Shown here: in pieces, positions 3,857 to 63,906 of the stretch
Position numbering within the stretch: the stretch's first letter is position 1
How the letters are laid out: each line of letters opens with the position of its first letter
Assembly: GCA_029747585.1 (NCBI GenBank)
Contig: JAPEVF010000019.1
Span: 62,001 to 126,000 of the forward strand
Length of the DNA: 64,000 nucleotides
Reading direction: 5' to 3'
From: Pleurotus djamor
Taxonomy: Eukaryota > Basidiomycota > Agaricomycetes > Agaricales > Pleurotaceae
Notes under the pieces: model-generated
What the model was told of the DNA's origin: nothing
Seen by the model: only the letters and a program-made list of their open reading frames with translations
Database searches by the model: none
Program-made: the position numbers and the translations under genes

Positions 3857-6012
3857 TTACTTTTCCACCGGATTTAAAGGTAGATTAGGGTGCATCTTCA
3901 ATTGGTGAAGTGCGTTACCAGAATGAACCTACGAATGGAATCTATCATCAAGCGGTCCGACTCATGTCAACCAGTGCACTCACGATGGGCCACAGTTCCT
4001 CCTCTTCATCCACTAAACACTCGAGAACTATTGGGCGACTGTTATCGTACTCCAAAAACTCCTTGATTTTTGAGGGGAGCTCTTCGTTATTCGAGCAACG
4101 CAAAGCTTTGACTCCCATAGAATCCGCCAGCTTCACGAAGTCTGGATTTGTCATAGGGAAGATCGTCTTCCCGTATAGAACCACTACCAGAGCGCTGTTA
4201 AGGCTAGGGAGAGACACGCATAGGAGAAGAGTCACATACCCTGCCAACGATCGACCATACCCAGTGAGTTATTGTTCAGGATAAGAACCTTGACTCCAAT
4301 TGAAAGCTCTGCAGCCGTTGCAAGCTCTGCGGACGTCATGAGGAATGACCCATCTCCATCGATGTCGATAACCGTGCGGTTTGGAGATGCAAGCTTGGCA
4401 CCCATCGCCGCTGGAAGACCGAAGCCCATAGTCTAAGAAACAACGAATGAGACCTCGGCTTCATTGGCAGGAAAGGTCATCATACCCCAAGACTACCAGA
4501 CGACACCAACGTTCTACCAGGCGCCCATGTATAATGCTGGGCAGCCCACATCTGATGATGTCCGACTCCCGTAGTAATCACGACCTCCTCGGTTGCTGAA
4601 GTCTGTCGATCCAACTCTTCTATCACAGACTGAGGCTTCGGACGCTCAGACGGACCGCTGATGTTGTAAGTGAAAGGAAGTCGCTCCTTCCAATCGCTTA
4701 TATGATCCCACCAGTTGTGACGACTACGCCGACGCATGAGGGGAATGAGGGAAGTTAGATTTTCGGTGACATCTCCAACGATGGCCAGGTCGACGGGCAG
4801 ACACTTTCCAACGCGTTTTGGATCGATCTCGAACGATATAATACCCCCAGCTCCACAGGCAGCAGCCGCACGAGCCCCCGGAGCAAAAGTGTTCCTGTTG
4901 GCCGTAACCCGATCGTCGAGACGCGCTCCAAGGGTGACCACAACATCGGCTCGTTGCACTGCGTAGTTTGCAGTGATGTTGCCATGTACTCCGAGCATCT
5001 GCAGGCTCCTGGAGTTGCGCTCATCGAAAGATCCGAGGCCATGCAGCGTGGTGGCTACTGGAATGTTACCTTTCCGCGCCATTTCGGAAAGTAGTCTCTG
5101 CGCGTCAGCTGATCGTACACCAGCGCCAGCAATGATCAGGGGCATTTCTGCGTTGTTGATCATGGACGCGACCTTTTCAAGATTAGCTCCTACGTCTAGC
5201 TGAGTTGGGCAGAGTTGTGCATCCGGTAGACTAGGCGCTGTGTCCTCTTCGACGTACGTGCTCGCGGCCACGCAGCTAGGTATATCAAGGATGACTGGTC
5301 CAGGTCTCCCCGATGTCGCGATCCGGAAAGCTTCGTCAACCGCGGGTCCCAAGCTAGCGGCGTCCTTGACGGTAACAGCCCACTTCGTACAGCTCTCCAT
5401 GATTCGAACGACGTCAACGCTCTGGAATGCCTCCGTACCCATCGCGCGAAGAGGGACCTGACCAGCAAAGACCACCATCGGTATTCCGTCACTGAACGCG
5501 TCTTGTATGGGCGTGAGCAAGTTCGTTGCACCAGGACCAGACGTGACGAAAATGACACCAGGCTTTCCTGTAATCCGAGCGTATCCCTCGGCCATATGCC
5601 CCGCACCTTGCTCGTGACGCGGCATGACTGGCGATATCCTGGGGTCTCCATAGACGACATTCTGAATATCCGCAATCGCCCCTCCTGGATAGCCGAACAC
5701 TATGTCGACATCTCGCCGGAGAAGCGCCTCAAGAACGGCCTGTGATCCCGTCTTCTGGATCTTTTTGGTCGACAAGGTAAGAGTATTGTCTCTCCGTTCG
5801 TTGGTGGAGATAGAATTGACTCCGTCCAGTCCCGTCCAATGCTTCCCGCGAAGCGCATCATCTTCCAGATTGACAGAGATTTTGTCCACCGAATGAGAGG
5901 CTAATTCGATTGAATCTCGTTCCAGCCGTTTAAGCGTTTGCAGACGTCTATGGATAACTCTCGAAACTCGAGGGAGGTGAGAGATTGGATGCTTAAAAAT
6001 CGAAGATACCAT
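3857..6012 (-). CDS. ILV2: Acetolactate synthase catalytic subunit, copy 1
   Basis: ThDP enzyme making acetolactate or acetohydroxybutyrate from pyruvate, the first common step of branched-chain amino acid synthesis, normally in mitochondria. Exons: 4486-6012, 4240-4432, 3984-4183, 3857-3928 (663 aa). Visible motifs in order: [24 protein letters not shown] with the ThDP-activating Glu, [25 protein letters not shown], then [14 protein letters not shown] across the first intron, the ThDP motif DGDGSFLM to [13 protein letters not shown], and the tail [10 protein letters not shown]. The N-terminus is basic and rich in Arg, Ser and His and lacks long acidic runs, fitting a mitochondrial presequence. 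The loop after the MVDRW motif is shorter than in yeast Ilv2 (YGKTIFP in place of the usual FYEHRYSHTHQ). It is paired with a second copy at 16837-19024 that has the same intron positions. Activity of this divergent type is inferred. Confidence 0.92.
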
Positions 6013-9000
6013 TTTAACCTTTCGTTAGGGCGTCGATGGCCTTGAGTACCGTTCTTGCTCGTGCCATGTCTATCATATACCTCGAAAAAAGTAAGGCACA
6101 ATGACCTCTTCGATACTTGAACGCATCTGATAGTTCCTAGCCCCGTCGTCCGCCACTATTACTGGCCTTGCTGCCAGCTTCCCTGATCTCATTGGTCGTC
6201 CTCCGCAGTGGTCAGATAGAATATTCCTAGCATCCATTCTTGTGGAAAATTCCGACAATCCGACAGCGCGATCTTTTGCGTAGATGTCGATGAGCCGCCA
6301 CTGGATGCATCAGATTCCAAAATGAAGGAATTTAAAGCATCCGCCAGCGGCCATCGGGCGACTGGTGCTGGCAGTGAGAGGGCAAGATTCTTTTGTAGTG
6401 CCAAGCAAGCAGCGTCTCAGTATATTCTCGTGTTATTTGCCAGATGTTAAACTCCAAAAGCATATCCACAAGTTACGGAAGCAAACGCAAAGACCCAGGG
6501 ACGGACGTTCACACTAAAAGATGGGAACGGAAGCACTGACTCCTGAATGTTTTGATCGCGCCCCTGAAAGGCCGGGGACTTCAAGAACGGCCTTCCGTCC
6601 GAGTTCAAGCTGGGTTGGGTGCTGACGGCCATCGGTATCAAGTGGCGCAGACATCTTGTTTCTACAGACGATAGCGCTTTACATGAAGTGACAAGCGGAC
6701 TTTTCTGCCCAAAACGATACTACAACATGAGGAACACCCAACAACAGACCTTATCCTCTAAAATGGATAAGAATTCATGGGGTCCACCTGAAAATGGGTC
6801 TAAGCACGCTGTAGCTGAAAGTCTTCCCCTCTAAGACGGCGACATCAATGAGGGTGGTCAATGACAATGCTACACTGAATTCATCACTGACGGTCTGCAA
6901 CCCTAGACTAACATACGACCTTCTCATTGGCCCAACCTTTGGCGTGCTCCCGGTATCCGGTGCGATGATGACAATACATGCATGGCAGACTTGCAAACTT
7001 AACACTCAGTTTCTGATAGCCATACTGCATCACGTAGACAAGACCAGAGACATACGTCACCGGAAAAGTACTGCGTCGCATGCGCTTCACCAGATGCGCC
7101 TAAGAATAAGCTGCCGAACAACTTCAAGCGTTAGCTTTTTCATCATCCTCTACATCCGAATGCTTCTCAAAATCTTCATGGTTTGTTCACCTGGTGAGTA
7201 AGTACACAGAGCACGCCATCCAATTCGCCGTAGGCAGTTGCCGTCCGCTTTCATTCCAAACAACCCGAGGTTCCGAGTAGGCCTGTGAGACCATGAAGAT
7301 GATCTGAGCTGGGCGTCCAAGTTAGCCTTGGATGACTCAAGGGCGGTGACCCAAGCGTCCGATGGTGCCCTCGTAAGGTAAGCCAAACACACGGGTTGCA
7401 AGAGTATACCTCCTTAGGTCGCCGCCCAAGCTTTGATCATCAAGATACTGAGTGATTCTGTCTAAAACTTATGTAACGTGGTGAGTTCATCGAGCCGATT
7501 TTACCGAACGGCTTACCATGTACATCTGCCCGAGAGCTACAGAGTTAATAGACAATCGCTTCTCCCCTTAGCTCACCTCCCCTTAGCTCACCCGTTAGAC
7601 CTACCCGCCGTGCCTACTCTATACCTTTTCAGCGTTCGCTGGGGGGATAGAGTATGGCCGACCAATAGCCAAAAAAAACGTTTACCTCTATTTTCCCCAG
7701 CCACCCAACGGGTTTCTTCTAGCCCTTTCGAACTCGTCGAAGAAAGAGGGAGAATGTCACTAAGGGAGTTTAAGAACAAAGCCCGGACCCGGAAGAAGTG
7801 CGCTCTGACCCTTAGCACACACAAACATCCACGAGCATAAGCACAGGGCCTCTCATTTCCGGAATGTTCAAGCCTATGAAGTCGTCGGAAATTCATGACC
7901 CATTGGACTTGGACTCTCACGAGAGCGCTCGCCTGAGTTCATTATACACTTATCTTGAAAGGGAGGAGGTGGCAAAGTGGGTGCCGTTGCCAGGTGGGTA
8001 CCATATGGGAAGTAATTGTCAGGTACCGAAGCCCAAATGGAATGGTACAGATCGTTCATGATTCGACGCATGGAGAGGGTAACTGTGCATCACAACATCT
8101 GTTCGCGGTAGAGAAAGCAAAGCGACGATAAGACACTTCCAATCAAGGAAGGTTGGGTCCTCGATAGAGGCCATATATATCCTGCGGGCCCTTGAATGGT
8201 CATCTGAACTATTGAGTCAGTTAGAGACCCTTTGAAGGGAGAGTGTACCATACTTACGCATTCAGAACGTAGCTCCGTTCGTGGGGAGATCGGAATATTG
8301 ATAAGGGTCGGTATGACAGGTTTGTGCTTGGGTGGTGAGGACGTATGCATCATGTCATTCTCGGGGCAACAAGTTCTGTAGGCCGATACGATCCAACCGC
8401 TCCGCGTAAACTATAGCCATGATGCCGGATTGCGGGAATTGTCACCAGTATTATTCTCGCCTTGCTGGTTGTGAAGGCGTCCAGTGAAGCTTGAGAGCTC
8501 ACTTCATAGCCATCACGGCTAACAAAGTGGAGCCTGAATCGGCCGATCTCTGGGAAGCCTTCGAGGATGCGTTAATGGCTTGGGAAGAAAACAACAACTG
8601 AGTTCCGAAGGGGAATTTCCTACCGCGTCAATCAGCAGACTGGGTGAGACGAGTTGCCGGGCCAGGAAGGTCTCGTTGGGTGTCTTTGGAAATCTACCGG
8701 CTTTTGGAGCGTCACGCGTACCAGTACACACGAAGGAGGTGCAGCGGAACGATTCCAACGCACTTGTGGATTGAATGTGCAAGAAGAGTATGTCTGAGGT
8801 ATAGGGGCGACGAATCCGCGTGTCACGGAGGCAAAACGATAAGCTGTGACTTTTGAGCGTACAAGTATGTAAAGAAACGTGCTCGAAGGGATACCCAGGC
8901 GGAGTCTGATGCAGTGTGTCGTTCGTTCATTACTATGCAGCAAAGGCAATCTCTGGGAAGCCCTCGTGGACCATGTTACTTTCTGGTGGGTATGCGCCTC

Positions 9001-14949: not shown

Positions 14950-16836
14950 TTTATCGACTCGTACCTTTCTAAAGGGCCCTGTGGAAATGCTAATCATCGC
15001 CGGATGCATTTGAATGATTCTCACCACGCTCCTTGGGTGAAGTGAGAAGCACACTCTCACCTGGCTAGATCTTTCCCCCCACATTCTGTGCCTTTATGCG
15101 CTGATCATATGAGAGCCTGGTCCCGACCCTCTTTAGCACTCGAGAACGCACCTCCAAAGGAACCTTGACTAAGATCCGCGACGTCCTGGCTTCGACTTCA
15201 TGGAGTTTCATTGCTCATTCATTGTATTTGCATTAGTGCGTAGTGCGCCAGTTCCATTTCCCCGTCATGAAGTCTACTTAGTCTGAGCGTATTACAGGCT
15301 AACCTCTACTTATCTTGATTTCAAATCTTAATTGTCGGTCTTTGTGAGGACCCTCTAGATGTTGATTCATGTGTGCTTCTTCAGTTTCTGGTGTGAACGC
15401 TAGAAGCGAAAGTCAAGCTCCCTCACTTATTTCATCCGCGATGAACTAATGCACTACAAAATTCCCCCCTGCTTCTGGCTATCACTTGATCAGCGTTTCT
15501 CAGCGACACCGACTCCGGGGTTTTGGGGGTTCTTTCGGGTGTCTCCTTTGACCTTCGTGGGTCGTGCTCAGCCGTGATCAAGATTGGGTACTGAGTACGT
15601 GAGAGCTCAGACTTTTTGAGTCCCCAATGAGGATCCCAACAGCAACGCCGTCGAAACTCGTAGATACAACACATCAGACTTTGCTCGCCGTCTGAGAGAG
15701 CTGGCCAACTACCCAACTTCGAGCTTCCCCTCCTGCACCACGCTGTTCGCATGAACTCTATGCTAACGCCCGTCAGCCAACGTGGATAACTACTACATCT
15801 CCGCCTCTACAATCAAGGACACCCAATACTTTCATCACACGCATCGCGTCCGTTTACGCAACGGCTTGACTCTCCTGATATGGTCCATCGGAAACCATTT
15901 GGAAGCTGTCACGCCGCTTGTCAGGTTGTTTGATCGATGCATCGTCGGACTAACTACTCATTTTTCTTTGTTTTCTAAGCTTGCAGGCACTCCTTCCTGC
16001 ATGGAAAGACCGCATCAATCGTCCGCACGCACAACTTCGATAAGTAAACCGACCCTGGCGTCCCTCTCCAATGTTTCGTGGGTCTCAACAGCTTGATCTA
16101 ATGCAAGCAGGCAAGATGAAGCTTGGGTTTCCCCCAAGCTCTGGTTATTGGCAGGGCTGTTGCCTGCTGTTGCTTTTAGTTTCTTTGGTAAGATATACCA
16201 GCCCGAGATCTAAGGCGGCGATGAAGCCTGAGACTATACGGTGGTTACTAGTTTATCTCGGATAAGGGCAAGGCGCAGTTTCTCGGCACTTGCCTGCTAC
16301 AATGTACATTGTCGAACCAATATGGAATCGATTGCTTTCGGGCTAAGACCTTTAGACAGCCCGCTACTCGCCCAAGATGATTTTGTTCGTGTACACTGTA
16401 AGTAGATATGAGTCGTTTGCGCTGCGTCCGTGCCTCTGCTTTAGTGATGTCGACAACCGATCTATTTTGTTGAATGTCAACGAGTGTCACAGATAGAGTC
16501 GAAGTCTACATCGGTTAAACACCATTAGAATCGAAGGGCGGCCATTGTCCTTGCGCGCTGGAATTGGATATCGATGGTAGCATCTTCGGTGCGACCTGTT
16601 TTCAGAGTCCGTGGTACAACGTGTGAGGCTTGCGGGAAACTCAGGATATACCACTGTCGTTGGTACTCCGCCAACTGATACGCCACACTGCTAATCGTGG
16701 AGTGCGTATTTGCTAGAGGGAACCCGGGTGTTTGCGAAGCGAGGAATATTCTATGCACTACAAAAGATACCTAGGCGTTCGTTGCGAGCAGAGTGTCGGG
16801 AGCTTTAAGGATATTTGCATTATTATATGAAGGCGA
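14950..16836. other. Intergenic, possible gene remnants, no gene called
   Basis: Short open frames exist on both strands but none joins into a recognisable protein. A plus-strand piece near 15783-15925 reads DNYYISASTIKDTQYFHHTH and may be decayed coding sequence. The last few hundred bases should hold the promoter of acetolactate synthase copy 2. Confidence 0.4.
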
Positions 16837-19024
16837 ATGCTAGATGAAGGCAGTACAATGATGCTTCAACGCCAACGCTGGTCCAAAGTGGTTCCTTCTC
16901 TTCGTAGGGAGTCGGTGCGCAACTGTGTGCAGCATCCTAGGCATGCAATCGACTACTCCAACGCGGCCGTAGGTGTGGACGTTGCGTTACCCATTGCTAG
17001 CGAGCCTTTATGGCAGCGCTGGGAGCACACCGACGATAGAAGAGGCAACGGTGTCGGACCGTTACTGCCTCAACCAAACACCAGGACGTTCCGACCGATC
17101 GAAAGTCAGAAGAAAGGGTCTCAAGCAGTCCTTGAAGCACTTCTCAGGCATAACGTCGACACCGTGTTTGGATATCCTGGAGGTGCGATTTTAGATATCC
17201 AGAATGTTGTTTACGGAGACGCCAGGATAACGCCAGTCATGCCGCGTCACGAGCAAGGCGCGGGACACATGGCCGAGGGATACGCTCGTATTTCAGGCAA
17301 GCCAGGAGTCGTCTTCGTCACCTCTGGCCCGGGAGCGACAAACATGGTCACACCCATGCAAGATGCGTTTAGCGACGGGATACCGTTGATCGTCTTTTCT
17401 GGCCAGGTTCCTCTAGATTCAGCCGGGACAGAGGCATTCCAAGAAGCTGATATTGTCCGCATCATGCAACCATGTACGAAGTGGTCCGTCGCTGTGAACG
17501 ACGCAGCCAGCTTAGGCCCTACGATCGATGAGGCTTTCCGACTTGCTGCCTCTGGTAGACCAGGTCCAGTGCTCGTCGATATCCCTAGCTGCGTTGCGGC
17601 GAGCACCTTTAGCCAAAGAGCATCACCCCACCTATCGAGCAGTCCGTTCCGTCCAGAGCCGAGGCAAAGAAGTGGTGCTTGTCTCGAAGAGGTTGCGTCC
17701 ATGATCAACAACGCGAAAACGCCCCTGATCATCGCTGGCGCTGGCGTGCGATCAGCTGACGCGCAACGACTCCTCTCCGAGTTGGCACAGAAAGGCAACA
17801 TTCCGGTAGCCACCACACTGCATGGCCTTGGTTCCTTCGATGAACGCGACTCAAAGAGTCTACAGATGGTCGGAGTGCATGGCAGCGTCCCTGCAAATTA
17901 CGCCGTTCAGCGGGCCGACGTCGTTGTGGCCCTGGGGGCTCGACTGGACGAACGTGTCACCGCCAACAAAAAGCATTTTGCTCCCGTAGCTAGGTCTGCT
18001 GCGACCTGTGGCTCTGGGGGAATCATCCAATTCGAGATCGACCCCGCCCGCGTTGGAAAATGCCTCTCAGTGGACCTTGCTGTCATCGGGGACGTTGCTC
18101 AAAACCTTGCCTCTCTTATCCCTCTCGTTCATCACCGCGCACGACACGATTGGTGGGATCACATTAGCGATTGGAAAGAACGACTTCCTTTCTCTTACCA
18201 TGTCAGTGGCCACTCTGAGCGTCCCAAACCCCAGTCTGTCATAGAGGAACTGGATCGACAGTCTTCGGCAATTGAAGACGTGGTGATTACCACGGGAGTC
18301 GGGAATCACCAAATGTGGGCAGCGCAACATTTCACCTGGACGCCTCGTAGAACTCTCGTATCATCAGGCAGCTTTGGGGTAGGTTCATCCCTCATTTTAC
18401 TCCGAGATATCACTCTCATCTTGTATTCTTCTAGACTATGGGATTTGGCCTCCCTGCAGCACTGGGTGCTAAACTTGCCTCACCAGATCGCACCGTAATT
18501 GACATCGACGGTGATGGCTCGTTTCTTATGACCGCAGCAGAGCTGGCTACTGCGTCTGAGCTCTCCATCGGAGTCAAGGTACTCATCTTCAACAACAACT
18601 CGCTAGCCATGGTTGATCGTTGGCAAGGTATGGCAGTTAATCGGCTTGGTGTCGAACCTCCATTGACACCGTTCACACCTATAGTCCAACATTACGGGAA
18701 AACTATATTCCCAATGAAGAATCCAGATTTCACGAAACTTGCAGAATCTATGGGAGTGAAGGCCCTTCGATGCACAAGCAATGAAGAGTTACCACGTAAA
18801 ATCCAGCAATTCTTACATTATGACAACAATCTCCCCATCGTGCTGGAGTGCTTCGTAGACAAGGATGAAGAGGTCTGGCCCCTTGTGAGTCGTGGTCTAA
18901 ATCGCTTCGCCTTCAACTTCAACTTGACATTGATCTATGCGCTTCGCAGAGACTCCCTGGTCAAGCCCTCCACCAATTCAAGATGCACCCCAGTTTACCG
19001 CTGAAGCGCGCCACAGACAGCTAG
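16837..19024 (+). CDS. ILV2: Acetolactate synthase catalytic subunit, copy 2
   Basis: Paralogue of the copy at 3857-6012, on the opposite strand. Exons 16837-18378, 18435-18627, 18685-18884 and 18950-19024 give 669 aa. Exons 2 and 3 have exactly the same lengths as in copy 1 (193 and 200 bases) and all introns share position and phase, including a third-from-last intron of 57 bases that is a multiple of three and could be misread as coding. Motifs: [64 protein letters not shown] to [22 protein letters not shown], and tail QALHQFKMHPSL. A second ATG at 16858 is a possible start. The N-terminal 90 residues diverge strongly from copy 1 while the catalytic body is close, so the two may differ in targeting. 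An earlier third copy of canonical type may exist elsewhere in the genome; it is not in this window. Confidence 0.92.
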
Positions 19025-47296: not shown

Positions 47297-47713
47297 CTAG
47301 CACTTGGCTGGTTTCGGTGTGGCCCACAGGTATAATGGCTGGACGAAGCGTCTAAAGCCTGCCAGCAACAGCACAGCTGCGCAACTCATGGTACCCAAGA
47401 CCGAAGCGGTATGCATGGCGGCCCCACTGGCGACGACGGCTTTCGTGGCGATAGCACCTTCGTTCTGTTTCAGCTCCGAGCGACATCGAATACCCTGAGT
47501 TGTAGAGTGCTCACCTGGCAAAGCCGCCAATCCACTGGCCCCAATGAGGGGTAACGCAGCCAAGGGTGCTGCAACCAGGCTTATCAGAGCGAGGGTATCA
47601 CCTGCCGTCCATGGTGAGTCTAAATCGATTCCAGGATGGAAGTACTCTTCATCGTCTGCGTTGACGAAGGAATGGCCGTCAACCACTGTATAGGCGTGAA
47701 TGTACTCTCTCAT
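47297..47713 (-). CDS. Putative small two-span membrane protein
   Basis: A single open frame of 138 codons starting at the ATG at 47713. It reads MREYIHAYTVVDGHSFVNAD, DEEYFHPGIDLDSPWTAGDT, then a hydrophobic span LALISLVAAPLAALPLIGAS. A polar stretch (EHSTTQGIRCRSELKQNEG) follows, then a second hydrophobic span (SVLGTMSCAAVLLLAG), closing FVQPLYLWATPKPAKC. The polar stretch begins with a donor-like GTGAGC but no acceptor keeps the frame, so I leave it unspliced. No family recognised. Acidic start and two hydrophobic spans suggest a small membrane protein, but it could still be a chance frame. Confidence 0.4.
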   Translation of the reverse strand: MREYIHAYTVVDGHSFVNADDEEYFHPGIDLDSPWTAGDTLALISLVAAPLAALPLIGASGLAALPGEHSTTQGIRCRSELKQNEGAIATKAVVASGAAMHTASVLGTMSCAAVLLLAGFRRFVQPLYLWATPKPAKC

Positions 47714-49579
47714 TCTGGAGACAGTGGTGGTGGTTGATGATCAAGATGCGAACATGCCCAGGCCGTGCATAATGAGCTTACTGCCTCCATCGTAGTGAAC
47801 ATAAGCTTAGGGTTAGAGCACGAAGGACACCTAATACGGCGGTAGAAGGTTCGAAGTTGGAACCCACGCTTCGCTGCCTTTTAGGGGTCTACCGTGTCCT
47901 GTTAGAATCATCTGTGCGTTTCGTTCCCTCTGCTAATTCATCGAAGCAGACTTCAGCCCAGTCCTGTTTCTAAAGAAGGTAGCTTAGTTAACCTGCATGG
48001 GTCGCTTAGAACTAGAGGTAACCGGTAAACGCAGACGGTAAGACAGGGGCTCCGTGCACAGGGGCGAACCAACGATCGCGCGACACGCGCTTCCTGGTCC
48101 CCGGATTGAAATATTGAACGTTGAACGTTTGAACGTTTGAACTTGCATTCTCCCAGAAGGCCCACCCCAATATCTGCCTGCCTCTCAGCGTTTTCCAGGC
48201 ATCGCGCCTGGATTCCGTACTTGCAGCAATTGGCAATGCGATGTCTATCATGGGCATCTTTTTTTCACTGTCACTGTTTATACGTTTCCTCCGGAGCTTA
48301 CGGCACGGTGTAAAACAGCAACTTGACTTTGACTTGACTTACTTACTTCAATTACGCGACTATGGGGTGAGTAAATAATAGTTTGACATCAATACGCCAA
48401 CTCATTGTCTGTCTTGTGCGTAGCGCCTTATTGCTTTCCACTGCGCCCATCCCTTTTCTGTTGTGAAAACAACCAGGTCAAGTCAGTAGCCTCGCGCAAG
48501 CGTTCGAAATTACGCTTTAGTAAGCCCTATGCTCTCGTTTGTGAGTCAATGAACCAACCGATAGTATGAGTACATACTTACCCTACGTTCCAATAATGGA
48601 CATGCTCAGTTTCTTGTTGCTTCACTGACTCTTCCAAAGAAATTCGGACATTCCAGGTGATTCCTCGATGAAATAATGGGAATATATCGCAACTGCCGCA
48701 AACGAAGCTGGATATGCGTTATTGTGAAAGGCCCGTGGCATTGGGGTGGCAATCCGGTGGAGATACAAACAGAGCTGCCTCAAGGGTGGGGGGATTAGAA
48801 ATTTAATCGTGAACCAGTAAGTCACGGCGCCGTTTATGTTTTAAAACACTCTTCATAAGTATGAACTATTCGCATCATAGGCCAATTGAATACAACTTGC
48901 TACGAGGCTTCTCAATTCGTCATGAAGAGGGTATCCATTCACGAAATCCCGGAAACCAGCATAACCTCTCAAAGACTTGGTGCTAGCCTCTAGATCGCTT
49001 TCAGACTTGGTGACATATGAAGGTATACGGTATATGGTCACCGAACGCCTTTGGTTGAACTTCGTTTTCGCAGACCTTTGATTCGCCTTCGCATGCTTCC
49101 TGTGTCGACGTTCGCCCATTCGCCGAGCACGTTGCGGTCGACTCGCTCCTTATTTGTGTTCCAATGTATCCCAGCTATTTTCTTCCTTGGTGCGCAAGCA
49201 TCAACTCTCCCGCCAAACCTCTGATCACTAGAACTGAGGCTTTCCCCCAGTCCGCCACCAAGTTCGGTCAGCCGTAGGTTGGGAAGTAAGGTGTGCAGAC
49301 AAGCACTCAGTTCCTTCCGTCTTTCCTTCCTCTTCCCCTTTGATCGCCGTTTACGGACATTGTACCTTTGTAAATCGCTTGTTATCCACTGCCTTCTCGC
49401 ATGGATCCCAAATTATCATTATCCCTCCCCCCTCCGTCATCTCATGTTCACAACTCAGATATGACCTTGTCCGGGCTCCCACTCGTTCTTTATCATCGTA
49501 TCTACTGCTTCTTGCTGTACTTACTGTGTACTTGATCTCATTTACTCCGTTGGACTATCAATACCATCGCCACATTGTA
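47714..49579. other. Intergenic, one weak small frame
   Basis: On the minus strand an ATG-started frame of 88 codons (48853-49119; MGERRHRKHAKANQRSAKTK, then SVTIYRIPSYVTKSESDLEA) has a basic start and mixed body. It may be a small gene, but there is no splice or family support. The remaining sequence holds the LysM gene promoter and nothing recognisable. Confidence 0.35.
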
Positions 49580-52492: not shown

Positions 52493-53421
52493 ATGTCATA
52501 TCCCTCCTCCTCCGAATCATATCATGGCCAAGATTCATCGGTTGAGATGAATGATTTCCAAACACCCGTCGTATCCGAGCGCATGGCGCTGCTCTCGCCA
52601 TCGGAGGGTCCCTCCTCTTCCTTTGGAGGGCTGAGGATGCCTGAGCTCGGCTCAGTCTGGTACGACTCCGCCTCGAGCAACGCGATCACACCTCGCACCA
52701 ACATCACCAACAATGTCGGGAATGACTTCGACAACAACAGTATCAAATCACCCAGCCTTCNGGGGGGTATTCCCGGAGGATGAGGAGGATATATTCCTAA
52801 GGGCAATGGCTGAGGGTGTCGGATCCCCTCGCAGCGATAACGGGTCGGCGGCTACCCACAGCAGGGAGGATGTCAGCCACAAGTTGGCTGAGATTACGGA
52901 GAAGAGGAGTGAAACCAAGAAGAAGGCATTCAAACAGACTGGTGAGTTTCGGACTGTTCCTGGACTCTGGTATCTGGTATTTATAAGAATCCAAACATGC
53001 AACTGACTGTTTCCCGCATGGTGATGTAGTGATTGTTGGTGTTGCTGGGACTGTTATTGGTTACACATGCACGACCCCGGCCATACGCACGGCTCTTCAC
53101 ATCATCGGCTTCAGTTCGGCGGGCCCCGTTGCAGGTTAGTGCTTATTTCGCTCCGCTACTTCCCACTAAGCTCAATTTTTCGTGCGGATAGGGTCGATTG
53201 CCACGAAAATACAGGCCCTCCTTGCGGGTCACGTCACCGCCGGCGACCTCTTCTCCTCCGCTCAGAGCGTCGCCATGGGTGGTTCCCTCCCTTTTGTAGG
53301 CAAAGTCGCCGGCGGCGGCGTCTTTGGCGGCGCTGCTGCGTATGCGAAGGCTTTGCTCTTCCGTAGGCGAGACAGAGCGTTGAGTAGAATCTATTTCGTC
53401 GGATACCAACATGTTGACTGA
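52493..53421 (+). CDS. IFI6/ISG12 (Ifi-6-16) family membrane protein A with long disordered N-terminus
   Basis: Exons 52493-52941, 53030-53134, 53192-53421 (about 260 aa). The first exon, with the spurious N at 52761 dropped, encodes a Ser/Asn/Glu-rich cytosolic-type region: MSYPSSSESYHGQDSSVEMN, then FDNNSIKSPSLRGVFPEDEE, and a Lys-rich helix EITEKRSETKKKAFKQT. The second and third exons give the hydrophobic Ifi-6-16 domain: VIVGVAGTVIGYTCTTPAIR, IIGFSSAGPVAGSIATKIQA, GHVTAGDLFSSAQSVAMGG and VGKVAGGGVFGGAAAYAK. The Gly/Ala-rich G-F-x-x-x-G-P-V-A-G-S and Q-S-x-A-M-G-G cores identify the family of the animal interferon-induced proteins IFI6/IFI27. The N-terminal 150 residues are not part of that family. 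Start at 52493 is the first ATG; the frame is open upstream. Confidence 0.75.
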
Positions 53422-54489
53422 TTCCTGGTCTTTTTCTCAGCATTAGCCTGCCGGTATGAAGCCTCCCACATGCACTGACGACCTAAGGCTCTCGGTTGGC
53501 CCGGATCACCGAAGATATGGACATCTTCAATATACCCTTACCCATGTTTTACCCTTNNTCGTTGATATATGTGCTATCTCGAGCATTCGAAATTTGGCAA
53601 GCAAAGTGAATACTTCGCGCACGCGTTTGAAGAGCCTGCTAGTCTGTTGAACCCCGCGCTCTCCCCATTTCCTTTCAAGTCAAGTATACGTCCACTTAGC
53701 TATTCATCAGCTCTCGCGCTGTGACATGATTATGTTGGTGAGCAATTATCCCTTTCTTCAAAGAAGCTTCCCAATGACTACTCATTACTCCGGTTCGTAC
53801 TGCTTATTTCAGACCCTTCATTAGACATATGACGGGCTCAGATATGATGTAAACAATCGTATATCGCCCTTTTGCCATCCCCAGTTCAAGTCGAACCTTC
53901 CTGGGTTTGTTTTTCATTGACTACGGCTTGGAAAACGATCTCAAGCTGCCCCCACTGGGTGACCGTCGTCAATGGAGTGGTCAGAGGGCAGCTGTGGCTC
54001 GGATGTGGCGGGTGGGTCGAGACCGCAATTCGGACTGAGCGTCATCATCAACTCTAAAGTGAGTGCCCTAGTCAAAGCTTCGCCTTGGCGATACAACATT
54101 ATGCCTCCCTGATACCCGTTACTCATTCAAGTGCTCTTGTATCATTAATCTCCAATCAACATCGCAACGGCTCCGAACCAAGTGGAATGCTGCTATGTTT
54201 GTTGTCATGACTCACGGCGCTGATCATTTGCCACAGAGACGTAGGCCCGTAAACATGTCCATCGCTCTTTGTACAGTTCATGTCGTCCGGATCGCCAAAC
54301 TCGCAAACTCATGACTTCGGAATTCGGTCAAGATGCATCTTTCACATTCAACACGCGGACCACGAGAAGCAGACAACAAGTACCTCGTTTTTAATCACGG
54401 CGGTCAAAGGCTAACATCTCCTCCCACACCTACTGCGGTGAGGTTGTGACTGATGCACGAGTCAGCTGCGAGGCATTCTCAGACGTACG
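53422..54489. other. Intergenic; right part is the upstream arm of a tandem duplication
   Basis: Two adjacent Ns at 53557-53558. From about 54050 onward the sequence is clearly related to 55310-55900 and acts as the 5' flank of the next IFI6-like gene. No gene seen in 53422-54050. Confidence 0.5.
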
Positions 54490-54496
54490 ATAAATA
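54490..54496 (+). promoter_or_regulatory. TATA-like box of IFI6-like gene B
   Basis: ATAAATA about 85 bases before the ATG. The same element occurs at the same distance before gene C, which supports it as a kept promoter element. Confidence 0.5.
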
Positions 54497-54577
54497 GTCC
54501 TCGCACGTCCCCCCACTTGCATCGCTCTGATCTTTCCAACTCTCGATACCAAACCTCTCAATACACCCAACACAGCT

Positions 54578-55203
54578 ATGGTTCTTTTCTCTCTAGCCCT
54601 TGGTAAGCAGCCGGTTAAGCATGCTTTCCTGTACCTGGGTGTAACATTGAAATACAGCCACCATCGGGTTCGTTCAATTCGTCGGTACCAAAATGTCCGC
54701 CGGCTGGGTACTAATCACAGGCCTCTCTCTCAAAACGGGTGAGTTCCTTGAGGCGATCATACCCATTCACTTCACTGACAATGTCATCGCGATTTCTCAT
54801 CTAATCGACTCCGACATCCGTGGTGGACCAAAACGTGACCAAACCGAATCGCAAACTACGTGGGACTCTTCAGCTTTGCTCGGGGCCACGGGAATGGCAG
54901 CAGGCGTTGCCGTCGCCCCCATCGCAGCACCACCTGTTCTAGGAGCAGTCGGGTTCGGCGCGGCGGGACCTGTCGCTGGTATGTTCCCTCCAAGTTGGTG
55001 AAGATGACTTTATCCTGACATCGTTCGTATAATTAGGTTCCATCGCGGCAGGGATACAGGCTAGCATGGGCAACGTTGTAGCAGGAAGTTTCTTCGCAGG
55101 TGCGCAAAGCGTCGCGATGGGCGGCGCCTTGCCTGCGATTGGTAGTGCTATTAGCGGTGGGATTTTAGGCGCTGTCGCTACAGTTGTCGGGCTTTTTGTC
55201 TGA
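54578..55203 (+). CDS. IFI6/ISG12 (Ifi-6-16) family membrane protein B
   Basis: Four exons 54578-54602, 54658-54738, 54874-54978, 55037-55203 give 125 aa, nearly all hydrophobic, Gly and Ala. N-terminus MVLFSLALATIGFVQFVGTK, then ALLGATGMAAGVAVAPIAAP, LGAVGFGAAGPVAGSIAAGI, NVVAGSFFAGAQSVAMGGAL and PAIGSAISGGILGAVATVVG with a short LFV end. The exon 3/4 junction falls inside GPVAG|S exactly as in genes A and C. Animal members sit in ER or mitochondrial membranes and affect apoptosis and innate immunity; the role in fungi is unknown. The second intron is long (about 135 bases) and could hide a small exon. Part of a cluster of three. Confidence 0.8.
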
Positions 55204-55815
55204 TTGAATTTACCACCAATTCACTCATTGATGTCTGTCGGGATTCGATGTCCAAGCTGGCTCTTAGACATGGTTGAGACCTTGATCCAGACACTTTGTG
55301 TCGGTCGTCGAAGTGAGTGTCCCCGTCATAAGGATCATTCGATCTGTCCTCTTTGATGCCCGTTACCCATTCAACAGGCTCTCCAATTAACATTGCAACG
55401 GCTCCGAACTAAGTGGAATTCTGCTATGGTTGTTGTCCTGATATTTACCCCAAAGACAGACTCGTAAACATGACCCGCGATCTTGACTCCTTCTACAGCT
55501 CATGCCGTCCGATTTCCATCTGGTCCTTTTCGATTCATGACACTCAGTTACACATGTCGGGCGCCCTTCCATCAGTGACCTCCCGATAAATTCCCACTTG
55601 AAATGCGGTCGAGATGCGTCCTTCACATCGAACACGCCGACCACGAGAAGTACACGAGAAGCAAAATCCTGGCTGCAAGTACTTGAGTCATTTCATGGAT
55701 TACGGCGCTCGAGACCATTCATCTCTTCTCGCACCTACTACAATGACGTTACGGACCCACGGGTGCACGAGCCAGTCCCAGAACCATTCCACTGATTGGC
55801 GCTCTCGAATGAACA

Positions 55816-55822
55816 ATAAATA
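55816..55822 (+). promoter_or_regulatory. TATA-like box of IFI6-like gene C
   Basis: ATAAATA followed by GTG about 90 bases before the ATG at 55912, matching the position in gene B. Confidence 0.5.
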
Positions 55823-55911
55823 GTGTACACGCCTGACCCACGCCCACGGCTGGCACCGTTCTACGTTCTACGACCCCCTCAATACCCAATCCTTCGATAC
55901 CCAACATCACT

Positions 55912-56561
55912 ATGGAATTATCTTCAGTTATCGGTAAGCACTCAGTTAGGCACCAATCTCTACGCCGTTCCTGTATGTTAAGCACGTTGAAATGCAGCTA
56001 GCCTCAATACAGGCCTCGGATTCGTTGGTTCCGCGGCGTCAGCTGGCTTTGCGCTGGCAACGAACGTGTCTCTTTCAACAGGTGAGTTTCTTGGTGCTAC
56101 CTACCATATCCGATTGAATTCACTGACAATGACGTCGCAAAATCTCATCTGACAATACGTTCTCTATCCGTGGTGGGTCAACGACATAAAAACGGATCGC
56201 AAACCACGCGGGGCTCTCCAGCTTTAGTCGGGGCCACGGGAATGGCAGCAGGCGTTGCCATCGCCCCCATAGCAGGGCCCGCTGTTTTAGGAGCAGTCGG
56301 GTTCAGCGCGGCTGGGCCTGTAGCTGGTACGTTCCTTCCAAGATGGTGAAGATCGATCTCAGGATTCTGACATCATCCGTGTCATTAGGTACTCTCGCAG
56401 CTGGCATGCAGGCTGGCATCGGGAATGTGATAGCAGGAAGTGTGTTCGCAGGTGCACAAAGTGTCGCTATGGGCGGCGCGATGCCTGCGATTGGTAGTGC
56501 TATTGGCGGCGGAATTGTAGGCGCTGCTGCGACGACTGTAAAGAAATGTTTCTTCAATTGA
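55912..56561 (+). CDS. IFI6/ISG12 (Ifi-6-16) family membrane protein C
   Basis: Exons 55912-55933, 55998-56081, 56222-56326, 56389-56561 give 127 aa. Text: MELSSVIASLNTGLGFVGSA, ASAGFALATNVSLSTG, ALVGATGMAAGVAIAPIAGP, AVGFSAAGPVAGTLAAGMQA, NVIAGSVFAGAQSVAMGGAM, SAIGGGIVGAAATTVKKCFF ending in N. The third exon is the same length (105 bases) as in genes A and B. N-terminus and C-terminus differ from B (a basic KKCFFN end in place of GLFV) while the central glycine-rich core is almost the same, so the ends evolve faster. Function unknown. Confidence 0.8.
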
Positions 56562-60800: not shown

Positions 60801-62832
60801 GACCGGTGGCAATGAACGCCTCTTGATCTGTGCTGCACCCGAATGGTCCTCTCAGTCTAAGGGCCCCAAGGCTGAACGTTGATGGATGATAACATATCGA
60901 ACGTTTGAACGAAACACCCATATGCACTGGTTTTCCCATATACCTGGTGTTGGAGTTACCGGATGAAGGGAGAGGTAAATATTTGTCTCCGGGGTAGGAG
61001 AAACCCCGCGAAATCGAAAGGTTGTTCCTGAAGCATCACTAGGTCTGATTGAAGCTTAACGTTAAGCGGTTACATGCTACGTTTTACTTGATAGCCTGAC
61101 GGACTGATCAGCAGAAAACGAAGAACAATAAGCAGCATTTGGCGAACCTGAAATGTTATTCGGGATCGACTGAAAGGGACGAATGGCAGTGTATTAGAGG
61201 AGGCGACGCGTGCATGGTGAATGCAGTCCGTTCACCAATTCATTGCGGAAATTAAGAGGATGCGCAAAGGCCTCCGGATGCCTATGTGGCCGGCGATAGT
61301 TTGGATTGAGACCCGGATTGAGACCGACGTACATGGGGGTATTCTGATGAACCCAGCTGAAGTACTTGAGCCCTTCGTGATTGATATCGAGCACTAACTA
61401 ACAAGTCCGCCGAGAACGTTAGGGTGTCAGACATTAATTACCCATAAGCGACGAACGATAGCGAGTAAGGGTCTACCGACGAGAACGCGGCATATGGATT
61501 CTGACGTGCTGTAAGTACCTAAGGAGGCAGCACGGCTAAGTGAGTAAAAGATGATAATGAAATGGAATAATGTCCTACTTGGTCTTATCAGTCCCCCAAA
61601 GTCCTAGCGTTCTGATTCATTTATGAGGCGAACTAGAATATTGGTATGGTACCCAATGCATCAACTAACGCTGCTAGACGCACAAGATCATGTTCAACGA
61701 TAGGCGACGATGAATAGACAGACTCGGATGCAGTGCATTTGCCGCCAGTTTTCTAATTGAGATATGAACGTTTGAACTTTGAAGTGCTATGACACTTAAT
61801 TAGTCCAAAATATCAAGCGACCATAATGGAGACGAAGATACCGCGACCCTCAATCAATGCATTTGACATGACCATACAGAACAGGTGGCACTGGACCGGC
61901 ACCCCTTCAGAATGGCAAAGATTCAATGTACCTTGGGTCAATGATCCATATGCATCGCGGGCCGGAGAGGGAAGACATCCTGATAGACGCCTCTCATAAG
62001 AGGCATCGAGTCGGAACTCGGGACATCCTGCACCGTTCGAGAGGCGCAAAGCCACGAAGTCCAAGTCGTGGTCAGAGTGAAGTCGAAGTCCTACACGCCC
62101 CAGCTGACACCCCGAACAAGCAGATTCCCGAGAAGACTGCTCATAGGGAAGCCATGAGAATGGATGTACAGAGTTTGCGATATTTTCTTGAGCAGTGATA
62201 GCTCAGGGCGGATACTTTATCACTGGATGACTTGACAGCGACTGTTAAAAAATTTCAGAATATGGTAGTTCCATATCATCCTGTACCGAAAAACTTACTT
62301 GTGCGCCTCTGAGCACCGTTCCATCAGATTAAATGGAGCCTTAGTTGATGCATAAACACCGTGGATCGCTCAAGAAGACCGAAGTCAAGCTTCAGCCGCT
62401 CGAAGCGCCACGCCAAGTCACATGGTGCTTTATAGAGGCATTCCTATCATCAGCGAGGCTCGTGTGTAGCTTGCGGCCGCATAATTCAGGGTACGACGCG
62501 GGCGATTGATGAGAAGGCAAAGTTGAGGGGGCTGGGATTGCTCGGGCCATATTCGAGAGTAGGCGACCGCAACACGTGTTCCAGAAAAAGCCACGGGGTG
62601 CTCGTGAACTTCAGAGTTCTCTGGTTATCGTTACCTGTTGATCCGTCAAGGCAGCAATTGGAGTCAGTCGTGCCTTACTGGCGGTTTGGCAAAAAANGCG
62701 CCACAAGAACGTTCAACTAGGAAGTGACACGCCTGTGGCGTGGAAATTGTGTGATTAGCGCGCGCCTATGTCCAAATTGAGTAAGCCTCCGCCGTTTGAA
62801 CGACATTTACTGACATACCTTCGGGCTTACTC
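57853..62832. other. 5 kb gene-free stretch; 5' leader of bZIP gene at left
   Basis: The first 300 bases form the bZIP leader with an upstream ATG at 58156. After that I find no recognisable coding exon, RNA gene or terminal repeat on either strand. Single Ns at 59650 and 62697 lie beside A runs. A short perfect hairpin CTCCTGTGCAGGAG sits near 58778-58791. Confidence 0.4.

Positions 62833-63906
<1,074 letters not shown>

What the first reader, a model, noticed from the sequence alone, without database searches (positions are those of the whole stretch)
52493..56561. Fungal cluster of three IFI6/ISG12 (interferon-induced 6-16) family membrane proteins
Three consecutive plus-strand genes share the Gly/Ala-rich core G-F-x-x-x-G-P-V-A-G-S/T and A-Q-S-V-A-M-G-G with intron positions conserved inside it. 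In animals this family (IFI6, IFI27/ISG12) is tied to innate immunity and programmed cell death at ER and mitochondrial membranes. A multi-gene array in a fungus, with fast-changing ends and a fixed core, suggests a local defence, incompatibility or death-related function. That role is inference; family membership is read from sequence.
Basis: partly seen in the sequence, partly recalled or inferred. Interest (0 to 1): 0.8.

Follow-up and report, generated by a model that had tools for sequence, protein, structure and literature searches.

The report
Oyster-mushroom cluster of interferon-6-16-family genes
The pink oyster mushroom carries three neighbouring genes for small membrane-type proteins related to the animal interferon-induced IFI6/IFI27 proteins; the relationship is real, but such genes are common in fungi and nothing here shows an immune or cell-death role.

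Summary
At 52493-56561 three consecutive plus-strand genes encode Gly/Ala-rich proteins with the core GF..(A/S)GPVAG(S/T)...AQSVAMGG. All three match Pfam PF06140 (25.8, 35.4, 28.3 bits; cut-off 29.1, so only gene 2 passes it); 0 of 9 shuffled versions match it. Two phase-1 introns sit at identical places, bounding a core exon of 105 nt in each. A profile of 80 relatives finds IFI27L1 as the only significant PDB hit (E 3.9e-5). The window is Pleurotus djamor: gene 2 is deposited as ONZ45_g1519 (with an intron translated) and a probable allele of gene 1 as ONZ45_g19010. Genes 2 and 3 are tandem duplicates; gene 1 shares its polar N-terminus with a dispersed fourth gene. The core is under purifying selection.

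The family is ordinary in fungi (580 relatives in one capped search; 41 of 120 listed carry names, all fungi), probable alleles barely differ, 40 ORFs scanned across the window show no defence-type domain, and no paper on a fungal member's function was found. Best reading: membrane hairpin proteins, mechanism inferred. The freshest lead is outside the window: elsewhere the domain follows RING-like or kinase-like N-termini, which would suit a regulated membrane effector.

The parts
52493..52941 (+). Gene 1 exon 1: long polar N-terminus with DEEDIFLRAMAE motif; frame changes at the N at 52761
   Evidence: public protein P0043
53030..53134 (+). Gene 1 core exon, 105 nt, phase 1-1 (VIVG...GFSSAGPVAG)
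   Evidence: P0043
53192..53421 (+). Gene 1 last exon (SIATKIQ...AQSVAMGG...RRRDRAL...HVD stop)
   Evidence: P0043 has the same length of end
54578..54602 (+). Gene 2 exon 1
54658..54738 (+). Gene 2 exon 2, variable N-terminal segment
54739..54873 (+). Gene 2 intron 2 (135 nt, open in frame), translated in the deposited protein ONZ45_g1519; the matching gene 3 intron is 140 nt
54874..54978 (+). Gene 2 core exon, 105 nt, phase 1-1
55037..55203 (+). Gene 2 last exon with AQSVAMGG and stop
55912..55933 (+). Gene 3 exon 1
55998..56081 (+). Gene 3 exon 2, variable N-terminal segment
56222..56326 (+). Gene 3 core exon, 105 nt, phase 1-1
56389..56561 (+). Gene 3 last exon with AQSVAMGG and stop

Best explanation
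Shown: a local cluster of three paralogous genes of the Ifi-6-16 (PF06140, IFI6/IFI27-like) family in Pleurotus djamor. Genes 2 and 3 are tandem duplicates (repeat spacing 1.2-1.35 kb); gene 1 is an older paralogue whose polar N-terminus is shared with a dispersed fourth gene. Inferred mechanism: each makes a membrane hairpin. A long hydrophobic helix, two short Gly/Ala-rich half-helices holding most of the nearly invariant residues (G-P, Q, QS, MG), and a second long helix pack through small-residue contacts and probably self-associate. Both ends probably face the cytosol (long polar N-tails in genes 1 and 4; basic C-tails in genes 1, 3 and 4, not 2). The proteins would sit in ER or mitochondrial membrane and alter its packing, shape or permeability, with the variable N-terminus setting location or regulation. 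A membrane-maintenance or stress role is more likely than self/non-self recognition. My confidence is about 0.95 for identity, 0.3 for the mechanism.
For: Pfam hits with 0 of 9 shuffles matching; the fourth gene scores 33.4 bits, over the cut-off. A profile of 80 relatives finds 2loq_A, IFI27-like protein 1, at E 3.9e-5, next best E 0.15; a 15-sequence profile finds only 2loq_A, at E 0.0035. AlphaFold model of the relative P0003 (93 aa, 71% identical to gene 3 over 61% of it), mean pLDDT 88, pTM 0.67: helices 3-31, 35-49, 52-65, 72-92; 18 of the 22 invariant or nearly invariant columns of the 80-sequence alignment fall in residues 35-68. Same phase-1 introns in 3 window genes and the fourth; my protein for the fourth is 100% identical to deposited ONZ45_g4881. 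11 of 141 fetched relatives carry a 16-25-residue insert exactly after GPVAG, none of the 11 bearing an organism name, as expected of an untrimmed intron at that place (picked by eye from 47 pattern matches). Genes 2 vs 3: dN/dS 0.22 in the core; gene 4 probable alleles 0.06 overall, 0 in the core. N-termini of genes 1 and 4 align beyond shuffles (score 122; maximum of 2000 shuffles 74).
Against: Genes 1 and 3 lie under Pfam's cut-off (25.8 and 28.3 vs 29.1; P0043 25.1). Foldseek found no PDB match for the core model, so the link to IFI27L1 rests on the sequence profile. Topology, location and self-association were not tested; there is no expression evidence. A hydropathy scan at 1.4 gives one candidate segment in gene 1, a weak one. 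One paper headlines IFI27 as a mitochondrial matrix protein (PMC10558685, passages), which does not suit a membrane hairpin. A genome search with the N-terminus of gene 4 returned only its own two copies, not gene 1, even at E<=10.
Confidence: 0.6

Rival explanations
1. Local defence, heterokaryon-incompatibility or programmed-death genes: the hairpin permeabilises mitochondrial or ER membrane when triggered, killing fused or infected compartments.
For: Animal members affect apoptosis and virus replication, IFI6 at ER membranes with BiP (passages of PMC8228428; shrimp IFI6-16, passages of PMC9144789). The domain follows RING-like and kinase-like N-termini in other species. Variable N-terminus.
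Against: No defence-type domain in 40 ORFs scanned; near-identical probable alleles; dN/dS below 1 in all segments; no functional paper on a fungal member found (in an open-licence library only).
Confidence: 0.15
2. Housekeeping mitochondrial or ER proteins that organise membranes or support chaperones, as proposed for IFI27 in brown adipocytes, with no immune role.
For: IFI27 is reported as mitochondrial and important for cristae morphogenesis (passages of PMC10558685). Purifying selection; neighbours with a match are mostly metabolic, tRNA, RNA or transcription proteins.
Against: Extra copies and a truncated copy in this genome suggest turnover; the N-termini of genes 2 and 3 have 0 Arg and 2 and 0 Lys, unlike a mitochondrial presequence.
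Confidence: 0.35
3. Convergent low-complexity Gly/Ala membrane proteins, not homologous to animal IFI6/IFI27.
For: Compositional bias (28-43% Gly+Ala); 2 of 3 proteins under the Pfam cut-off; a shuffled sequence can reach E 0.0057 with an unrelated family.
Against: 0 of 9 shuffles match PF06140; ordered motif, shared intron places, and IFI27L1 as the only significant PDB hit.
Confidence: 0.03

Closest known systems
Pfam PF06140 Ifi-6-16 (FAM14: IFI6, IFI27/ISG12a, IFI27L1, IFI27L2)
   Same: Core motif GF(T/S)..G....S.AA ... G.VAAGSL.A..QSV aligned to IFI27L1 2loq; small helical, largely hydrophobic protein
   Different: Fungal form has GPVAG and AMGG, long polar N-terminus in genes 1 and 4; fungi have no interferon system (established knowledge)
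Other agaricomycete Ifi-6-16 proteins (Hohenbuehelia, Lactarius, Russula, Armillaria)
   Same: About 58-72% identity over the aligned part; same intron place inferred; two Russula ochroleuca genes (locus tags 725090 and 725099) lie on contigs of the same length, so probably near each other
   Different: No match to the N-terminus of genes 1 and 4 found; five basidiomycete proteins carry RING-like N-termini
Ifi-6-16 proteins with a kinase-like N-terminus (P0118 of Wetmoreana brouardii; P0103, P0057, P0107, P0135, P0141 without organism names)
   Same: Same C-terminal core
   Different: N-terminus resembles a protein-kinase C-lobe, below Pfam cut-offs; absent from the window genes

Membership tests
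Ifi-6-16 / FAM14 | Match to the curated family model | tested here: met
   Gene 2 35.4 bits, over the 29.1 cut-off. Genes 3 (28.3) and 1 (25.8) are under it, E 1.6e-6 and 9.8e-6: not met by the strict cut-off, supported by paralogy. Fourth gene 33.4. Controls 0 of 9
Ifi-6-16 / FAM14 | Detectable homology to an animal member | tested here: met
   IFI27L1 (2loq) E 3.9e-5 with an 80-sequence profile, best of 177635 PDB sequences; with gene 4 alone only E 3.1
Ifi-6-16 / FAM14 | Fold like the solved IFI27L1 | tested here: inconclusive
   Helical model, mean pLDDT 88, but Foldseek returned no match at all
Ifi-6-16 / FAM14 | ER or mitochondrial membrane location | not testable with these tools
   Needs tagged protein
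Ifi-6-16 / FAM14 | Induction by interferon or virus | not testable with these tools
   No expression data; fungi lack interferon (established knowledge)
Fungal incompatibility / NLR-type loci | HET, NACHT or similar domain in or beside the genes | tested here: not met
   Genes 1-3 match only PF06140; 40 ORFs scanned (36 of 37 of 150 aa or more), none. Intron-split domains could be missed
Fungal incompatibility / NLR-type loci | High allelic divergence | tested here: not met
   Gene 4 probable alleles differ at 4 of 300 residues, gene 1 at 8 of 259; one pair each; genes 2 and 3 not testable

The most novel reading that the evidence does not exclude
In fungi the Ifi-6-16 core is a signal-coupled membrane effector: lineages attach regulatory N-termini (RING-like, kinase-like, or the acidic DEDIFLRAMAE tail of genes 1 and 4) to the same C-terminal hairpin, so that the interferon-induced IFI6/IFI27 proteins of animals are one recruitment of an older regulated membrane-perturbing module, analogous in logic to MLKL.
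Probability: 0.2. Interest if true: 0.75.

Novelty: new member of a known kind. Interest (0 to 1): 0.35.

Why it matters
The animal family is studied as interferon effectors acting at ER and mitochondria. Fungi have the domain without interferon, in organisms open to genetics, so its ancestral activity could be tested there. The RING-like and kinase-like N-termini would give a clue to how the domain is switched, if they hold up.

Tried and rejected
Own-genome search with the Pfam family itself gave nothing, in the 14 control genomes too; searching exon by exon with proteins worked. A scan of viral contigs (60 pattern matches) and of prokaryote genomes (595) confirmed no relative. Foldseek and VIA-align on the core model returned nothing. 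I suspected that exon 2 evolves faster than the introns: a permissive alignment suggested it (54 of 105 vs 46 of 242 differences), but with MAFFT exon 2 is 53% identical against 62% (intron 1), 71% (each half of intron 2) and 79% (intron 3), so I claim only that it is no better conserved than the introns. Exon 1+2 dS is 1.45, too high for a claim of positive selection. A protein search with gene 4 found itself and two PF06140 proteins covering 19% and 14% of it; it also missed P0043, which is in the same database and shares both N-terminus and core, so its silence on the N-terminus in other species is weak. Paper searches touching fungal members: (one search was swamped by 12,487 general papers); the only fungal mention seen is one table row in PMC10051545 (passage). 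PMC8546338 was checked by passages and is irrelevant. Parker and Porter 2004 and PMC6468951 are not held.
Full report
What is there. The window lies in a genome of 55.9 Mb held in 1413 contigs. The closest public protein to gene 3, P0001, is Pleurotus djamor ONZ45_g1519 on a contig of 194588 bases, exactly the length of the contig holding the window. It is window gene 2 letter for letter with intron 2 (54739-54873) translated. I read the window as P. djamor, family Pleurotaceae.

Gene models. Genes 2 and 3 splice to 125 and 127 aa with canonical introns. Gene 1 has an N at 52761 that breaks exon 1. The public protein P0043 (ONZ45_g19010, 260 aa, 5303-base contig), probably its allele, is open throughout, fits the splices I had chosen, and differs at 8 of 259 compared residues, 0 of them in the 70-residue core. 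A DNA search of the held assembly with gene 1 gave only the window copy, so that contig seems not to be held. In all three genes the core is cut by two phase-1 introns at the same places and the exon between them is 105 nt. I take the deposited form of gene 2 to be a model error, since the corresponding gene 3 intron is 140 nt and genes 1 and 4 splice at that place. Gene 3 gave no full-identity database hit, so it may be unannotated.

Family. Pfam gives PF06140 and nothing else for all three at E<=1, with 0 of 9 shuffles matching it. Gene 2 passes the curated cut-off; genes 1 and 3 fall short by 3.3 and 0.8 bits. A profile of 80 relatives finds IFI27L1 (2loq; that it is the human protein is recalled) at E 3.9e-5 among 177635 PDB sequences; the next hit is at E 0.15. 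Gene 4 alone reaches it only at E 3.1. A profile search of 5.8 billion proteins gave 580 relatives at E<=0.001, 120 listed; 41 of the 120 bear an organism name, by my count, all fungi, Basidiomycota and Ascomycota. That search was seeded with fungal sequences and capped (7992 candidates scored, length limited), so it is no census and says nothing about animals. No relative was confirmed in viral contigs or prokaryote genomes.

Copies in the genome. Exon searches find the three window genes, a fourth on C1328 with a probable allele on C304 (95% over 7.4 kb), and a truncated last exon on C681 and C27, which are copies of each other (97% in the longest block, less elsewhere) and share their 3' flank with gene 3. 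Counts are lower bounds. My protein for the fourth equals deposited ONZ45_g4881. It has both the long N-terminus of gene 1 (score 122, maximum of 2000 shuffles 74) and the short N-terminal exon of genes 2 and 3 (gene 3 vs 4, shuffle p about 0.001; gene 2 vs 4, p 0.05). A genome search with the N-terminus of gene 4 did not pick up gene 1, so that likeness is real but modest outside the motif. I infer that the ancestor had both parts, that genes 2 and 3 lost the tail and gene 1 the short exon.

Rates. Genes 2 vs 3: dN/dS 0.50 N-term, 0.22 core, 0.28 C-term. Probable alleles of gene 4: 21 synonymous and 4 non-synonymous changes in 300 codons. This is purifying selection, strongest in the core, with no sign of the diversifying selection expected of recognition genes. 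One pair of alleles per gene is thin evidence.

Structure. The 93-aa relative P0003 models as four helices, 3-31, 35-49, 52-65 and 72-92, mean pLDDT 88. Of 22 invariant or nearly invariant columns, 18 fall in residues 35-68, the two short middle helices and their loops, and 4 at the end of helix 1. I infer a hairpin with two half-helices in the membrane. Foldseek found no solved structure alike, and did not return 2loq.

Context. I scanned 40 ORFs of the window: 36 of the 37 of 150 aa or more (62759-63247 left out) and 4 shorter ones near the genes. 15 of 40 match a family at E<=0.01: tRNA synthetase class I (C), DALR, GAF, LysM, bZIP, CCCH finger, RING, TPP-enzyme domains, short-chain dehydrogenase, DUF6593 (below its cut-off), PIG-U and Gti1/Pac2. 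Nothing points to an incompatibility locus. Domains split by introns can be missed.

A lead beyond the window. Of 141 fetched relatives my motif rule placed the core in 130; 32 of these have more than 45 residues ahead of it (one of the 32 is P0001 with its translated intron). Eleven of the 32 group in an all-against-all BLAST. Several resemble a kinase C-lobe: sub-cut-off Pfam kinase hits in 2 of 7 scanned (best E 0.0012, profile positions 184-255); Aurora A as all 60 shown of 86 PDB hits for P0118 (best E 0.03); and 49 of 50 listed Foldseek titles naming a kinase or pseudokinase, the other naming only an inhibitor, though none at E<=0.001 (model mean pLDDT 67, block means 87-94 in residues 51-120). 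A profile of 30 sequences including these found no kinase in the PDB at E<=1, most of its rows lacking that part. Five basidiomycete proteins (P0051, P0058, P0068, P0110, P0116) give RING-type hits, all below cut-offs. Armillaria adaptin fusions (P0016, P0045, P0046) are probably gene-model mergers (my judgement).

Verdict. The thing is a new member of a known, widespread fungal branch of a known family for which I found no functional study. The immune or death role is possible but unsupported here.

Noticed in passing
public proteins P0118, P0103, P0057, P0107, P0135, P0141: Ifi-6-16 core at the C-terminus of proteins with a kinase-C-lobe-like N-terminus; only P0118 bears a name (the lichen Wetmoreana brouardii); hits below curated cut-offs.
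   Followed up: partly
public proteins P0051, P0058, P0068, P0110, P0116: Ifi-6-16 core behind a RING-like zinc finger in Fomitopsis, Punctularia, Wolfiporia, Obba and Jaapia; RING hits below cut-offs.
   Followed up: partly
G000:C681:4143-4259 and G000:C27:10726-10878: Truncated last exon of a gene 3-like copy with the same 3' flank as gene 3: a decayed or rearranged duplicate.
   Followed up: partly
window 54739-54873: Deposited protein ONZ45_g1519 translates intron 2 of gene 2.
   Followed up: yes
window 52764-52941 and L008 3703-4216: Acidic motif DE(D/E)DIFLRAMAE shared by the N-termini of genes 1 and 4; not found elsewhere, but the search was weak. Could be a binding motif.
   Followed up: partly
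window 47300-47740, minus strand: Another Ala/Gly-rich hydrophobic ORF with no Pfam match at E<=0.01.
   Followed up: no
window 4483-6024 (-) and 16831-19001 (+): Two separate thiamine-pyrophosphate-enzyme genes (N, M and C domains) in one window, on opposite strands.
   Followed up: no
window, 14 places: Single or double N bases scattered in the assembly (15 in all), one in gene 1 exon 1 and one pair just after gene 1.
   Followed up: no
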